Assembly: GCA_905221605.1 (NCBI GenBank)
Contig: CAJNDS010000458.1
Location: 112,001 to 176,000, forward strand
Reading direction: 5' to 3'
DNA from: Symbiodinium natans
Taxonomy: Eukaryota; Sar; Dinophyceae; Suessiales; Symbiodiniaceae
DNA length: 64,000 nucleotides
This document shows positions 1-64,000 of the stretch, one piece after another. The position numbers and the translations under genes were made by a program. Position 1 is the stretch's first letter. Every line of letters starts with the position of its first letter. A model generated the notes under the pieces. The model ran no database searches, was not told the DNA's origin, and worked only from the letters and a program-made list of their open reading frames with translations.

Positions 1-2
1 TC

Positions 3-74
3 TTCGTCCATGTGGTTTTCACCTCTGTTGTCCACGCGGTGGCCACATATTTCTTCGGCGATTTTCGTCTTCAG
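3..74 (+). CDS. Candidate exon, left end unseen
   Basis: An open frame reading FVHVVFTSVVHAVATYFFGD, hydrophobic, running off the left edge of the window. The right boundary is unclear (an AG lies at 73-74). Function unknown. Confidence 0.3.
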
Positions 75-140
75 AGGCCGGTCCTCTCACATCCTCTCCC
101 CTGCGTGTGGTGGCAACGGCAGCTTTCGGTTTTTACCTAC

Positions 141-306
141 CCCAGAGGGTCCATTTGTAGTACTGTTATGGAATTAGCCTAAACCCTAAACCCCCGAAAC
201 CCTAAGCCCTAAACCCTAAACCCAGATACCCCAAAGCCCTATGCCTATGTAGCATGGGTTTTGGGGTACCTAATTCCCTAGCAGCACTACAAATGGGCCC
301 TCTGGG
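141..306 (+). mobile_element. Inverted-repeat element family A, copy 1, with telomeric insert
   Basis: Ends CCCAGAGGGTCCATTTGTAG and its inverse (CTACAAATGGGCCCTCTGGG). Compared with copy 1191-1301, about 49 bp of CCCTAAA-type repeat (178-226) interrupts it after GGAATTAG. Confidence 0.75.
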
Positions 307-568
307 TGGACTGGAAGGTTGTCGCACGTTCGATCCCGACATGTCCACTTCACATTTACTATTTGCTTGCTTAAGAACCCCCACACCCCCACACCCACAC
401 ACCCCCCTCCCTCCCCCCAGAAAAAGAAAGAAGAAAAAGAGAAAGAACATAATAAATAACATAAAATAACATAAAATAAAATAGAAGTATTAATAATTAA
501 CATCAAGAAACGACAAAGCTCCCTGTATTGCTCTTATAAGTCGGAGCATGTGTATGTTTTGGCTTCAG

Positions 569-710
569 CAAGTAATAGTGGATGTGGGTACGGTTTTCGA
601 GCAGCTCTGCACAGCTTTGTGTATCCTGGCATGCCTTGAATTGCTGTGCCCGGTCACCATGCGCCCGGTCTTGCCAGATCCTCCGCTGTCGACCTACATT
701 CCCGATTGCA
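569..710 (+). CDS. Candidate exon
   Basis: GGCTTCAG acceptor, then 47 codons reading QVIVDVGTVFEQLCTALCIL onward, then GTCGAT donor directly before a TTTAGGG array. Hydrophobic, Cys-rich; unrecognised. Confidence 0.5.
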
Positions 711-788
711 GTCGATTTAGGGTTTAGGGTTTAGGGTTTAGGGTTTAGGGTTTAGGGGTCAGGGCTTGGCATCATGTCCCTTGCTCAG

Positions 789-927
789 GCGCTCATCTTG
801 CCCAGGCCATGATATCCGCAAAACGGTTGTTGTCCTTTCAAGAGCTTGTGAGCGCCATCCCTCCCTCGTTCCAGAGAAACCGCAAGGCAGGGAAGGCTTC
901 CATCGTCACACCAGCAGCTTCTCAATG
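789..927 (+). CDS. Candidate exon
   Basis: CTTGCTCAG acceptor, then an open frame including AMISAKRLLSFQELVSAIPP. Donor probably GTCCCT at 928; the frame stays open to about 950. Preceded by a G-strand array and followed by a C-strand array. Confidence 0.45.
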
Positions 928-974
928 GTCCCTCGTTGAGTGCCCTAAACACTTGGGGCCGCCTTTTTTCTAGT

Positions 975-1051
975 AACCCTAAACCCTAAACCCTAAACCC
1001 TAAACCCTAAACCCTAAACCATAAACCCTAAACCCTAAACCCTAAACCCTC
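975..1051 (-). repeat. Interstitial telomere-like array (CCCTAAA)n
   Basis: About eleven CCCTAAA units with rare variants. Strand minus means that TTTAGGG reads on the minus strand. Confidence 0.95.
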
Positions 1052-1102
1052 AACAGAACCCAAATTTAGAGAATCCCCCCCCCCCAAGTGAAGGTGTAGC
1101 AG

Positions 1103-1179
1103 TTTTTTCAAAAGCCTGGGCAGCTCCCTGGTCCGCAATGTCTCGACAGCTTTCAATCTCAACGGAAGCTGCTGCTGTC
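1103..1179 (+). CDS. Candidate exon ending at a MITE target site
   Basis: GTAGCAG acceptor; frame reads FSKAWAAPWSAMSRQLSIST. The donor GTGAGAAC is part of a 10-bp repeat (1178-1187 and 1303-1312) that brackets the inverted-repeat element just downstream. Confidence 0.45.
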
Positions 1180-1187
1180 GTGAGAAC

Positions 1188-1302
1188 TATCCCAGAGGGT
1201 CCATTTGTAGTACGATTATGGAGTTAGGTACCCCAAAACCCTATTTAGTATGGTTGTTGGGTACCTACTTCCATATTAGTAGTACAAATGGACCCTCTGG
1301 GT
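1188..1302 (+). mobile_element. Inverted-repeat element family A, copy 2, complete
   Basis: About 110 bp, termini CCCAGAGGGTCCATTTGTAG and its inverse. TCGTGAGAAC is duplicated at 1178-1187 and 1303-1312, a 10-bp target-site duplication. Confidence 0.8.
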
Positions 1303-1396
1303 TCGTGAGAACGGGTGGGAGAGGGGGGGGGGAGGGCAGGGGGGCAGGGGGCGATCTATACCTAACCCTTGAGGGTTTGGGGGCCGAGGGTTTAAG

Positions 1397-1449
1397 TGGG
1401 TTTAGGGTTTAGGGTTTAGGGTTTAGGGTTTAGGGTTTAGGGTTTAGGG
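1397..1449 (+). repeat. Interstitial telomere-like array (TTTAGGG)n
   Basis: About seven perfect units. Confidence 0.95.
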
Positions 1450-61683: not shown

Positions 61684-61707
61684 CAGAACCTTGAAGCTCT
61701 GATGCAG
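61684..61707 (+). CDS. Candidate 24-bp micro-exon
   Basis: CTTGCACTTTCAG acceptor, GTGGGA donor, eight codons QNLEALMQ in phase 0 with both neighbours. Confidence 0.45.
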
Positions 61708-61736
61708 GTGGGAGGGAAGGGGGGTTTCCTTTTCAG

Positions 61737-61769
61737 CATGAATCCCTTACACGAGGGAGGAAAGCCTGA
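61737..61769 (+). CDS. Candidate terminal exon
   Basis: TTTCCTTTTCAG acceptor after a 29-bp intron-like gap, frame HESLTRGRKA then TGA. If 29 bp is too short to splice, the exon model here is wrong. Confidence 0.35.
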   Translation, partial: HESLTRGRKA

Positions 61770-61881
61770 ACCCCAAGCCTGCCTGAACGCCCAAAGCCCT
61801 AAACCCTAAACCCTGAACGCTAAACGCCTGAACCCCTAAACCCTGGTCAAATGGCATCCGAAAGCCCCCAAAACATCGAAG

Positions 61882-62015
61882 GGTAGTTTCATGGTCCCTT
61901 CATATGCCTTACCTCCTTTAAAGGGTTCCGCAGTGTGGGGGGTCCGTGGGTTGCATAGGGTATGAAAGGGGCATATAAGGTTCCCCTTTTCAGGGCCCGT
62001 GCTAAGGTTACCTTA
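61882..62015 (+). mobile_element. Inverted-repeat element family F, third copy
   Basis: GGTAGTTTCATGGTCCCTTC to GTGCTAAGGTTACCTT. Confidence 0.5.
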
Positions 62016-62200
62016 AGAAAACCACTCCCGCAAGTGCCAGCTGTATCTCAGAGTTCCCCCCCGCCCTTACCCATCAACTTTTGACTCCGGAACCCTGACC
62101 TCGAACCCAACGTCCCAAACCCTCATGCTGGCGCAGGTTTTGGGGTTTAGGGTTTAGGATTTTTCGGATTTAGGGTTCAGGGTTTAGGGTTAGGGGTTAG

Positions 62201-62286
62201 GGGAGTTACGGCTGGATGGAGGCCGGATTCTGACGAAGAGTCGACTCTGCGACTGCCAGGCATCCCCTTTTGCAGGACTTCCGTAC
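62201..62286 (+). CDS. Candidate exon with telomeric sites on both sides
   Basis: Acceptor GGGGTTAG, donor GTTTAGGG, 28 codons including GWRPDSDEESTLRLPGIPFC. Confidence 0.55.
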
Positions 62287-62371
62287 GTTTAGGGCTTACG
62301 GTTCAGGGTTTCGGGTTCAGGGTTTTCAGGGCTTTGAGGCTTTAGGGGGTGTACACCTCGGAATCATCAAC

Positions 62372-62466
62372 AGTCACAGACCCCTTATGCGCAGAGCGTG
62401 GCAGCCACTACCAGACCCTCAATACCCCTCCAACCCGATAAGTCCTATAAACACAAACCCTGCTAA
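62372..62466 (+). CDS. Candidate terminal exon
   Basis: AGTCACAG acceptor, frame TPYAQSVAATTRPSIPLQPD and on to TAA. Other frames are open. AT-rich, UTR-like sequence follows. Confidence 0.35.
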
Positions 62467-63050
62467 AGCCCTGTTTTATCTGTTGAGTTTTTGAACATAT
62501 GTTAACTAACAAAAGTTAGTTTAACAACACCCTCAATGGTTTCATTACATTCGTTTTTTCAACAACCTTCGCATGGATTAGATACTAAACATGCACCAAT
62601 GCCACAAACTTTAAGTAATGTTGTACCATATTCATCCAGAAACCGGTTTACGAACTAATTAGCACAAAAAGCAACCTACAAACCCTAGAGGAACCCTGCA
62701 AGAAACACGGTAAAAAGCCCTCCAAAACCTAAACCCACGCCGGCCCCAAGAGCGAAAGTCGGAGCCCATGGGCCCTTAGTATGGCCCCCTTACCCTTACC
62801 CGGGTTTAGGGTTTAGGGTTTAGGGTTAGGGTTTAGGGTTTAGGGTTTAGGTTTACAAGGGATCCGAAGATGGGCCCCTTTTTCATGAGTTCCCCTATTA
62901 CCCCCTCTATACCACCCTCCTCTCTACTTCCCCCCCCCCCGGGTTCCCCCCATAATTAAGGCTGTTTAGGGATAATGAAGCCGAATTCTAAGGCTACCTA
63001 CGGGAGAACAGTATGGAGGGGGACCCATGACTGTTATATCCAGTATACAA
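62467..63050. other. AT-rich stretch, UTR-like, no gene seen
   Basis: Repeat-poor and T/A-rich to about 62700 (GTTAACTAACAAAAGTTAGT is an inverted tract near 62500), then a G-strand array at 62802-62852 and fragments of the GGGCCCTTA inverted-repeat family. Confidence 0.4.
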
Positions 63051-63051
63051 G

Positions 63052-63600
63052 TTGGGATGTTCCCCCTTCTGCTAACAGTCCTTATTAGGGAATTATAAAA
63101 ACCCGAGCATCTGTTTAATTGGGGGGGGGTGCCACCCCCCCCGCCCCCCTAAGAAAGGCAGGTTTCCGCAATAGTGTGACCATGGCCCTGCATTGATTCT
63201 CTATTCACACAAAAAGAATGTATTGAAAACAATAGGAAGGTATAGAATCTCAGAATATCTATTAAAACTGAATAACAAAAGTATTGACTCTCTATAGACA
63301 ACAATAGGAGTGTATTGAATCTGCAGAGCCCTGAGGTGGCTTCGTAGTTTCACGGATTTCCAAATGCAGCTCCGAGAGAAGCAAAAAAGACCCGCGCCAG
63401 AAATCTGGCAACCCACCCCAAACAAATCTTTTAAATGTGGTGGGGTTTCCCCATACGAAAACCCCCCTAATGGAAAGTAGTCCTCCGGCGGGCTTCGCGA
63501 CGAAAAAACCTTTAAATGTGGTGGTATTCATTAAACTGATGCTCGGATTAGGAGTATAATCCCTATTAAGGATTTTTTGTATAAGGTGGATCATCCCAAT
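63052..63600 (+). mobile_element. Foldback element family D, long form (548 bp)
   Basis: Terminal inverted repeats of about 70 bp: TTGGGATGTTCCCCCTTCTG through CCGAGCATCTGTTTAAT at the left and the diverged inverse at 63530-63600. The interior has no transposase; CTTTAAATGTGGTGG occurs twice. Confidence 0.65.
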
Positions 63601-63666
63601 ATGCAAGGGTTAAGAAGGCAAGGGGCCCCAAGTAAGGGCCCATACTTGGAACCCTAGACAAGAGCA

Positions 63667-63779
63667 GGGTTTAGGGTTTAGGGCTTAGGGCTTAGGGCTT
63701 AGGGCTTAGGGCTTAGGGTTTAGGGTTTAGGGTTTAGGGTTTAGGGTTTAGGGTTTAGGGTTTAGGGTTTAGGGTTTAG
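63667..63779 (+). repeat. TTTAGGG array with TTAGGGC block
   Basis: Two TTTAGGG, five GGGCTTA, nine TTTAGGG; the last TTTAG is the acceptor of exon 63780. Confidence 0.95.
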
Positions 63780-63871
63780 TATTCATAGCAGCATTGAGTG
63801 CTCCGGGTTCCTGTGTGGAAAAGGCGCGATGGATTCCAAGCTTCTGACGGATCCGCTGCAGCTTCCTGGCT
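63780..63871 (+). CDS. Candidate exon with telomeric acceptor
   Basis: A 110-bp G-strand array ends TTTAG (acceptor); donor GTTTTG. After one base, 30 codons IHSSIECSGFLCGKGAMDSK and on. Confidence 0.6.
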
Positions 63872-64000
63872 GTTTTGGGTTGAGGTTTTAGGGTTTTTGG
63901 GGTTTAGGGTTTAGGGTTTAGGGTGTAGATGTTGGGGGGTCAAATATTTGGAGCCAAAATCTTCTATAACTCCCCTAAAACCCTAAGCCCTGCATGACTG

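What the first reader, a model, noticed from the sequence alone, without database searches (positions are those of the whole stretch)
1..64000. Telomeric units may act as ready-made splice sites: introns built from TTTAGGG repeats
Seen: at many island/array borders the donor is GTTTAGGG (7997, 10061, 13670, 14089, 16431, 21275, 29602, 30983, 40024, 40981, 45890, 56095, 56703, 59469, 61359, 62287) or the acceptor is TTTAG (13741, 15030, 21777, 32306, 53536, 54113, 63780). The unit holds both GT (GG|GTTTAG) and AG (TTTAG|GG), so any insertion of G-strand telomere repeat carries both intron ends. Inference: telomere-repeat insertions can enter genes as self-splicing-ready introns, a telomere-derived kind of introner.
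Basis: partly seen in the sequence, partly recalled or inferred. Interest (0 to 1): 0.95.

Follow-up and report, generated by a model that had tools for sequence, protein, structure and literature searches.

The report
Telomere repeats bracket exons by orientation
In the alga Symbiodinium natans, DNA repeats that normally cap chromosome ends sit inside introns close to exons, usually facing one way after an exon and the opposite way before the next one; they are not the splice sites, but the pattern suggests that splicing decides where and how such repeats can lie.

Summary
The window is nuclear DNA of the dinoflagellate Symbiodinium natans. I rebuilt one conserved 33-exon gene (14010-53283, +, 520 aa, 418 of 513 residues identical to a Symbiodinium linucheae protein). 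Its best-fitting splice sites are ordinary dinoflagellate GC/GT/GA-AG sites lying between exon and array. Over three genes, 0 of 57 donors are GTTTAGGG and 1 of 57 acceptors is TTTAG. "Ready-made splice sites" and a telomere introner are not supported.

What is there is an orientation rule. In the first 150 bp of this gene's 32 introns arrays are G-strand (23 G, 4 C, 5 none); in the last 150 bp C-strand (24 C, 4 G, 4 none). Of 33 exons, 23 have a C-array just upstream, 24 a G-array just downstream, 19 both; random array-free intervals give 6.1, 6.1, 2.7. A second gene agrees; a third is mixed. Genome-wide, C-array/85-115 bp/G-array pairs outnumber the reverse 107,320 to 41,057; at 400-430 bp they are equal. 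Splicing-linked selection is the best explanation; no RNA was available.

The parts
14010..53283 (+). Conserved 33-exon gene, 520 aa, no Pfam family; arrays lie in its introns
14010..14044 (+). exon 0 (start ATG)
14522..14576 (+). exon 1
16360..16410 (+). exon 2
16721..16756 (+). exon 3
17953..18017 (+). exon 4
20864..20891 (+). exon 5 (3' junction margin 3.5)
21208..21258 (+). exon 6
21777..21834 (+). exon 7; its acceptor is the one fitted TTTAG|G (3' junction ambiguous, margin 0)
22727..22768 (+). exon 8 (5' junction ambiguous, margin 0)
23619..23675 (+). exon 9
24325..24365 (+). exon 10
25320..25380 (+). exon 11 (3' end uncertain, margin 2.0)
26218..26243 (+). exon 12
30093..30143 (+). exon 13
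30929..30979 (+). exon 14
31959..31997 (+). exon 15
35917..35962 (+). exon 16
38508..38549 (+). exon 17
38801..38835 (+). exon 18
39534..39589 (+). exon 19
39940..40006 (+). exon 20
41252..41304 (+). exon 20b (3' end uncertain, margin 2.2)
41478..41546 (+). exon 21 (5' end uncertain, margin 2.2)
42932..43020 (+). exon 22
43992..44013 (+). exon 23
45008..45055 (+). exon 24 (3' end uncertain, margin 1.5)
45833..45844 (+). exon 24b (5' edge uncertain, margin 1.5)
46917..46956 (+). exon 25
47921..47985 (+). exon 26
49770..49809 (+). exon 27
50881..50901 (+). exon 28
51510..51548 (+). exon 29
53212..53283 (+). exon 30 (stop TGA)
14045..14521 (+). intron; arrays in first/last 150 bp (or half): G/C
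14577..16359 (+). intron; G/C
16411..16720 (+). intron; G/C
16757..17952 (+). intron; none/C
18018..20863 (+). intron; G/C
20892..21207 (+). intron; G/none
21259..21776 (+). intron; G/G (against the rule at 3')
21835..22726 (+). intron; C/C (against at 5')
22769..23618 (+). intron; none/C
23676..24324 (+). intron; C/none (against at 5')
24366..25319 (+). intron; C/C (against at 5')
25381..26217 (+). intron; G/none
26244..30092 (+). intron; G/C
30144..30928 (+). intron; none/C
30980..31958 (+). intron; G/C (array 3 bp behind a GC donor)
31998..35916 (+). intron; G/C
35963..38507 (+). intron; G/G (against at 3')
38550..38800 (+). intron; G/C
38836..39533 (+). intron; G/G (against at 3')
39590..39939 (+). 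intron; C/C (against at 5')
40007..41251 (+). intron; G/C
41305..41477 (+). intron; none/C
41547..42931 (+). intron; none/C
43021..43991 (+). intron; G/none
44014..45007 (+). intron; G/C
45056..45832 (+). intron; G/C
45845..46916 (+). intron; G/C
46957..47920 (+). intron; G/C
47986..49769 (+). intron; G/C
49810..50880 (+). intron; G/C
50902..51509 (+). intron; G/C
51549..53211 (+). intron; G/G (against at 3')

Best explanation
Telomere-type repeats (TTTAGGG)n lie in S. natans introns as passengers of ordinary spliceosomal introns, not as splice sites. Close to exons they are mostly in one orientation: G-strand RNA (UUUAGGG) just inside the donor, C-strand RNA (CCCUAAA) just inside the acceptor, so that exons tend to sit between CCCTAAA and TTTAGGG. 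Shown here: intron confinement and the orientation rule at both ends in one large gene, agreement in a second gene and not in a third, a bias strongest near the splice sites, a matching asymmetry at exon-sized spacing over the whole genome, and that right-way arrays are enriched beside the large gene's exons while wrong-way arrays are near chance. Inferred: the cause is splicing-linked selection acting at each splice site on its own. G-triplet/UAGGG-rich RNA behind weak GC or GA donors, and pyrimidine-rich, AG-free RNA before acceptors, would be tolerated or helpful; the reverse would not. How the arrays got there (telomerase action, slippage expansion, copying) is not resolved.
For: Exons solved by homology: 30 of 33 anchored at first pass, 3 found after. 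Ends of 32 introns: 23 G/4 C/5 none and 24 C/4 G/4 none. Exon control: 23, 24, 19 of 33 against 6.12, 6.07, 2.71 in 2000 random draws, none reaching; wrong-way 4 and 4 against 5.94 and 5.94. Distance: 5' side G:C 24:4 (<=100 bp), 13:1 (100-300), 14:17 (>300); 3' side C:G 25:6, 8:7, 19:10. Within the gene, 20 of 36 C-to-G islands of 20-230 bp overlap an exon, against 1 of 21 G-to-C, 2 of 20 CC and 2 of 18 GG (20/36 against 5/59, Fisher p 1e-6); islands over 230 bp, left out of that test: 2 of 7, 1 of 19, 1 of 7, 2 of 6. Second gene (arogenate dehydrogenase, 12 introns): 2 G:0 C at 5' ends, 3 C:0 G at 3' ends. Pooled over 57 introns 28 G:6 C and 29 C:7 G (binomial p 1e-4 and 2e-4). Genome-wide 107,320 to 41,057 at 85-115 bp, 136,865 to 138,014 at 400-430 bp.
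Against: No transcript of this species was mapped; two structures rest on protein homology and one on the species' own deposited protein. The third gene (SIRT2, 13 resolved introns) is mixed: 3 G:2 C and 2 C:3 G. The two genes outside the window taken alone are not significant (10 of 15, p 0.15). On the 3' side the bias is not cleanly local: C:G 8:7 at 100-300 bp but 19:10 beyond. A simple AG-exclusion reason is not borne out: AG-free distance before the acceptor has median 9.5 with a C-array (n=22) and 12 without (n=10). Loci L015 and L016, fetched for chaperonin hits, have no array of 21 bp or more, so arrays are not needed for splicing in general. Genome-wide counts are of overlapping array pairs, not of independent islands; inside the window the 85-115 bp bin itself shows no excess (25 to 31), the excess being at 116-200 bp (467 to 164).
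Confidence: 0.55

Rival explanations
1. One reading: a G-strand telomere insertion carries GT and AG in every unit and splices itself out; telomeric units are the donors and acceptors (a telomeric introner, or repeat expansion of a dual-specific splice site).
For: Each unit holds GGGT and TTTAG; one fitted acceptor is TTTAG at 21776; dual-specific splice sites in tandem repeats are described for human genes (PMC10809524, passages read).
Against: 0 of 57 donors GTTTAGGG, 1 of 57 acceptors TTTAG; G-strand at both ends in only 4 of 32 introns; GTTTAGG is the rarest start phase, 23 of 278 runs.
Confidence: 0.04
2. The 5' G-array and 3' C-array of one intron pair in the pre-mRNA and bring distant splice sites together, as proposed for (AC)m-(GU)n introns of zebrafish.
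For: 10 of 32 introns have at least 14 nt of perfect complement between their ends, against a mean of 3.3 in 200 sets of random pseudo-introns (P 0.005).
Against: Partners swapped between introns pair as well (mean 11.8 of 32); predicted duplex energies differ little (median -85 own ends, -71 random pseudo-introns; at or below -30 in 29 of 32 and in 97%); a 5' G-array and a 3' C-array do not go together (16/7/8/1, one-sided Fisher p 0.95; other 25 introns 1/4/4/16, p 0.71); pairing alone would not fix which strand is first.
Confidence: 0.15
3. An element with inverted telomeric ends (introner or MITE), or a break in the intron healed by telomerase on both sides and rejoined, created the G...C layout in one event.
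For: The layout is what two-sided healing would give; introners of S. microadriaticum have inverted ends and 4-bp target repeats (PMC9860276, passages read).
Against: The two ends occur independently; the nearest perfect run of 14 bp or more lies 3-73 bp behind the donor in 16 of 23 introns (up to 508 bp in the rest) and 6-119 bp before the acceptor in 21 of 22 (530 bp in one), not at a fixed distance; no target-repeat excess; masked introns share only short pieces, the longest 119 bp.
Confidence: 0.15
4. Neutral arrays with only purging of wrong-way copies next to splice sites; no help to splicing.
For: Genes without arrays splice, as far as homology tells (loci L015-L016).
Against: Right-way arrays are enriched 3.8-fold and 4-fold beside exons of the window gene while wrong-way ones are near chance, 4 against 5.9.
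Confidence: 0.2

Closest known systems
Introners of dinoflagellates and other eukaryotes (PMC9860276, PMC7789003: passages read)
   Same: Repeated DNA tied to introns; inverted ends in part of the families; GC and GA donors; reported in Symbiodinium microadriaticum
   Different: Here the shared part is a telomeric tandem repeat, no target repeats are seen, array-masked introns share only short pieces, and the repeat does not carry the splice sites
[quoted passage not shown] content recalled, paper not held)
   Same: Complementary simple repeats near the two ends of one intron
   Different: Different repeat; here the ends are independent and no cis co-adaptation is seen
hnRNP A1 (UAGGG) or duplex-forming intronic sites that loop introns (titles in a reference list and the UAGGGA/U motif, PMC4932749 passages; mechanism recalled, one paper not held)
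   Same: UUUAGGG arrays hold the UAGGG motif next to donors
   Different: Animal system; no dinoflagellate protein was tested, and the acceptor side carries the C-strand
Dual-specific splice sites in tandem repeats (PMC10809524, passages read)
   Same: A repeat unit holding AG and GT, so that repeat expansion could be spliced out
   Different: The unit's GT is used in 0 of 57 donors and its TTTAG in 1 of 57 acceptors here
Noncanonical introns of diplonemids with pairing ends (PMC12621601, passages read)
   Same: Intron ends able to pair
   Different: Those lack GT-AG; here G[CTA]-AG sites fit and pairing is not intron-specific
Interstitial telomeric sequences; in Karenia rarely seen by FISH (PMC6395649, passages read)
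   Same: Telomeric repeat inside chromosomes
   Different: Here 2.37 million overlapping three-unit 21-mers in the assembly, tied to exon edges and strand-oriented in the window gene

Membership tests
Introner elements | Many sequence-similar introns | tested here: not met
   array-masked introns of the window gene share only short pieces, longest 119 bp; one gene only
Introner elements | Target-site duplications at intron ends (in part of families) | tested here: not met
   mean slide 2.53 bp against 2.79 (SD 0.16) permuted, 32 introns
Introner elements | Terminal inverted repeats (in part of families) | tested here: inconclusive
   G at 5' and C at 3' in 16 of 32, but at varying distance and independent of each other
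Introner elements | Presence/absence of the intron between relatives | not testable with these tools
   no relatives held for this genome
Dual-specific splice-site repeat introns | Repeat unit used as 5' and 3' splice site | tested here: not met
   0 of 57 donors, 1 of 57 acceptors
Complementary-repeat introns of the (AC)m-(GU)n kind | Complementary simple repeats at both ends of one intron | tested here: met
   10 of 32 with >=14 nt, 3.3 in random pseudo-introns
Complementary-repeat introns of the (AC)m-(GU)n kind | The two repeats occur together in one intron | tested here: not met
   Fisher one-sided p 0.95 and 0.71
Complementary-repeat introns of the (AC)m-(GU)n kind | Pairing promotes splicing | not testable with these tools
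   needs a splicing assay
Dinoflagellate spliceosomal introns | GT/GC/GA-AG ends | tested here: inconclusive
   57 introns fit 35 GC, 14 GA, 8 GT, but the fit for 44 of them required such ends and for the other 13 preferred them among 3-10 exact alternatives
Interstitial telomeric sequences | Arrays of the telomeric repeat inside chromosomes | tested here: met
   177 arrays in this 64-kb window, which lies inside its contig at 112001-176000

The most novel reading that the evidence does not exclude
Telomeric repeats have been recruited as a genome-wide, strand-coded exon bracket: UUUAGGG behind donors and CCCUAAA before acceptors help the spliceosome to find short exons with weak GC/GA donors in long introns, so that the telomere sequence doubles as a splicing signal.
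Probability: 0.3. Interest if true: 0.92.

Novelty: new variant of a known kind. Interest (0 to 1): 0.75.

Why it matters
Interstitial telomeric repeats are usually read as scars. Here they follow exon edges and strand in a large gene, and an asymmetry at exon-sized spacing is seen over the whole assembly. That makes two open questions testable with existing data: how dinoflagellate spliceosomes find exons whose donors are mostly GC or GA, and how repeats spread without breaking genes. It may also help exon finding in a genome that is hard to annotate (about half of C-to-G islands in the solved gene overlap an exon), with a caution: array edges are not splice sites.

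Tried and rejected
Array borders as donors or acceptors: rejected. TTTAG decoy avoidance as the sole reason for C-arrays before acceptors: not supported. Cis-pairing as the cause: not supported beyond the orientation rule itself. Target-site repeats: none above permutation. Naming the window gene: no Pfam family at E 0.01. Rfam: nothing at gathering score in the window. Ab initio exon chains: leads only, with spurious minus-strand chains and one implausible score (L027 minus, 1334.8). 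The DinoSL search never got an answer. Head-to-head pairs (gap 0-30 bp), meant to test the break-healing model, never got an answer. Scripts 16 and 32 ended in file errors and were redone.

Limits of the counts: exon fits for the window and L021 genes required G[TCA]-AG ends, so they cannot show unusual splice sites; GTTTAGGG and TTTAG were allowed by that rule. In one search, before exon 20b was found, GTTTAGGG at 40024 scored best for the exon-20 donor; with exon 20b placed, a GT donor at 40007 is best (margin 7.8). Weak junctions (margin <= 3.5, named by the exon before): E5, E7, E11, E20b, E24. In SIRT2, 2 of 15 junctions between anchored exons were left out because micro-exons seem to hide there. 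L021 and L026 were solved because they held both arrays and a recognisable gene; L017 and L027 also hold arrays beside genes and were not solved.

Full report
What the window is. The window is G000:C458:112001-176000 of a 759,417,921-base assembly in 2543 contigs that holds 1,185,204 forward and 1,184,385 reverse copies of a three-unit telomeric 21-mer, against 41 and 33 for the reversed pattern. A protein deposited as sirt2 of Symbiodinium natans has a longest contig of 670,087 bases, which is the length of contig C1800 here, and it matches that contig exon by exon. The assembly size is close to that of S. natans CCMP2548 (761.6 Mb in 2855 scaffolds, 51.79% G+C; table in PMC8045281). So I take the genome to be S. 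natans, a free-living dinoflagellate.

The observation. All listed strings are there (16 of 16 and 7 of 7). The array starts are not enriched for the phase GTTTAGG: 23 of 278 perfect runs, the rarest phase. The arrays alternate in strand (119 of 176 steps; 0 of 10,000 shuffles reach this) and C-to-G gaps are short (median 112.5 bp) while G-to-C gaps are longer (217 bp). In thirteen other loci of up to 10 kb (L015-L017 chosen for chaperonin hits, L018-L027 by contig number, 10 returned of 20 asked), C-to-G gaps have median 125 bp (n=12), G-to-C 503 bp (n=11).

Exons lie in the islands. Stitching plus-strand translations of islands found a 520-aa protein of Symbiodinium sp. CCMP2456 (named S. 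linucheae in PMC8045281) at E 4.9e-51, three homologues from contigs of 1.7-1.8 kb, too short to hold such introns, and a fifth, weak hit (E 0.92). Mapped back, it runs colinearly on the plus strand; 33 exons and 32 introns give a complete 520-aa frame from ATG 14010 to TGA 53283, 418 of 513 aligned residues identical to the S. linucheae protein. The protein has no Pfam family at E 0.01.

Where the splice sites are. In this gene the best fits are 23 GC-AG, 5 GT-AG and 4 GA-AG. Where a G-run of at least 14 bp is the nearest run to the donor (23 introns), it lies 3-73 bp behind it in 16 and further in 7; where a C-run is the nearest to the acceptor (22 introns), it lies 6-119 bp before it in 21. 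In 7 introns a C-run is the nearest to the donor and in 8 a G-run is the nearest to the acceptor. Over three genes (window 32 introns; arogenate dehydrogenase in L021, 12; SIRT2 in L026, 13 of 15 anchored junctions) 0 of 57 donors are GTTTAGGG and 1 of 57 acceptors is TTTAG.

The orientation rule. In the first 150 bp (or half, if shorter) of the 32 introns arrays are G-strand in 23, C-strand in 4, absent in 5; in the last 150 bp C-strand in 24, G-strand in 4, absent in 4. Against random array-free intervals of the same lengths in the gene, exons have a C-array within 100 bp upstream in 23 of 33 (6.1 expected), a G-array within 100 bp downstream in 24 of 33 (6.1), both in 19 (2.7); none of 2000 draws reached this; wrong-way arrays are at 4 and 4 (5.9 and 5.9). 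The bias is strongest near splice sites: G:C is 24:4 within 100 bp of donors, 13:1 at 100-300 bp and 14:17 beyond; C:G is 25:6 within 100 bp of acceptors, 8:7 at 100-300 bp and 19:10 beyond, so some lean stays on the 3' side. Of C-to-G islands of 20-230 bp in the gene 20 of 36 overlap an exon; of the other three kinds 5 of 59 do; over 230 bp it is 2 of 7 and 4 of 32. In the window and L015-L027 together, C-to-G islands of 60-230 bp also score higher than G-to-C ones on a codon table trained on exons from this genome (63 against 34 islands, p 0.007).

Other genes. Arogenate dehydrogenase (best homologue P0006, from a 1163-base contig): 2 G and 0 C at 5' ends, 3 C and 0 G at 3' ends of 12 introns. 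SIRT2, fitted to the species' own deposited protein: 3 G and 2 C at 5' ends, 2 C and 3 G at 3' ends of 13 introns, so this gene does not show the rule. Pooled, 28 G:6 C and 29 C:7 G; the two genes without the window give 10 of 15 in the expected sense (p 0.15). Loci L015 and L016 have no array of 21 bp or more.

Genome-wide. Pairs C-array, 85-115 bp, G-array occur 107,320 times and the reverse order 41,057 times. At 400-430 bp the counts are 136,865 and 138,014. These are overlapping pair counts, so the ratio, 2.6 against 0.99, is the result, not the totals. A like shift is seen inside the window (467 against 164 at 116-200 bp, 84 against 91 at 400-430 bp), though its 85-115 bp bin gives 25 against 31.

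Mechanism. Two-ended one-event models (inverted-end element, two-sided telomere healing) and pairing of the two ends predict that a 5' G-array and a 3' C-array go together; they do not (16/7/8/1 in the window gene, 1/4/4/16 in the others). End-to-end complement is above random pseudo-introns (10 against 3.3 of 32) but not above swapped partners (11.8), and predicted duplex energies differ little (medians -85 and -71). Junction repeats are not above permutation. What is left is a rule at each splice site on its own. Because right-way arrays are enriched and wrong-way ones are near chance, I favour splicing-linked selection that keeps or favours right-way arrays over mere purging. Why the strand matters is inference: UUUAGGG holds GGG and the UAGGG motif bound by animal hnRNP A1 (motif in PMC4932749, passages); CCCUAAA is pyrimidine-rich and free of AG. 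A pure AG-avoidance reading failed.

What is known. Introners of S. microadriaticum with 4-bp target repeats and inverted ends are described (PMC9860276, passages), as are introners of Amoebophrya (PMC7789003, passages) and of Polarella (as told in the review PMC11453091, passages). A term search of the main text of the paper that describes the S. natans assembly gives 0 occurrences of 'telomer' and of 'TTTAGGG' (PMC8045281). Paper searches, in an open-licence library only, listed no paper whose title or shown start of abstract reports oriented telomeric arrays at intron ends; the lists were cut at 8-20 rows where more papers matched, and most subscription papers are not in that library.

Verdict. 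A strand-coded bracket of telomeric repeats around exons is the finding: strong in one gene, matched by a genome-wide asymmetry at exon-sized spacing, in agreement in a second gene, mixed in a third, and untested at RNA level.

Noticed in passing
33429-34448: Intronless plus-strand ankyrin-repeat ORF (339 aa, Pfam Ank E 6e-51) nested inside intron 31998-35916 of the mapped gene; perhaps a retrocopy.
   Followed up: partly
36876-37646: 256-aa open frame in internally repetitive DNA (self-matches 98 to 275 bp apart) inside intron 35963-38507; no Pfam family.
   Followed up: no
1190-1300, 29238-29353, 48604-48714: About 110-bp palindromic MITE-like element in several copies with ends like CCAGAGGGTCCATTTGTAGTAC.
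   Followed up: no
30165-30283, 44220-44338, 13300-13411, 61178-61282: 119-bp repeat, 94% identical between two introns of the gene, with a copy at 87% and one at 73-75%.
   Followed up: no
56587-61355: Further C-to-G islands with exon-like plus-strand frames by eye, perhaps another gene running out of the window; not identified.
   Followed up: no
L026 between reverse-strand 6629 and 8614: SIRT2 appears to have micro-exons (for residues LEDK and NI) that could not be placed.
   Followed up: partly
L020 2490-3816: A 1.3-kb stretch of C-strand units, about a third of it in unit 7-mers, longer than any array of the window; perhaps an interstitial telomere tract.
   Followed up: no
three genes, 57 introns: Fitted donors are 35 GC, 14 GA and only 8 GT.
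   Followed up: yes
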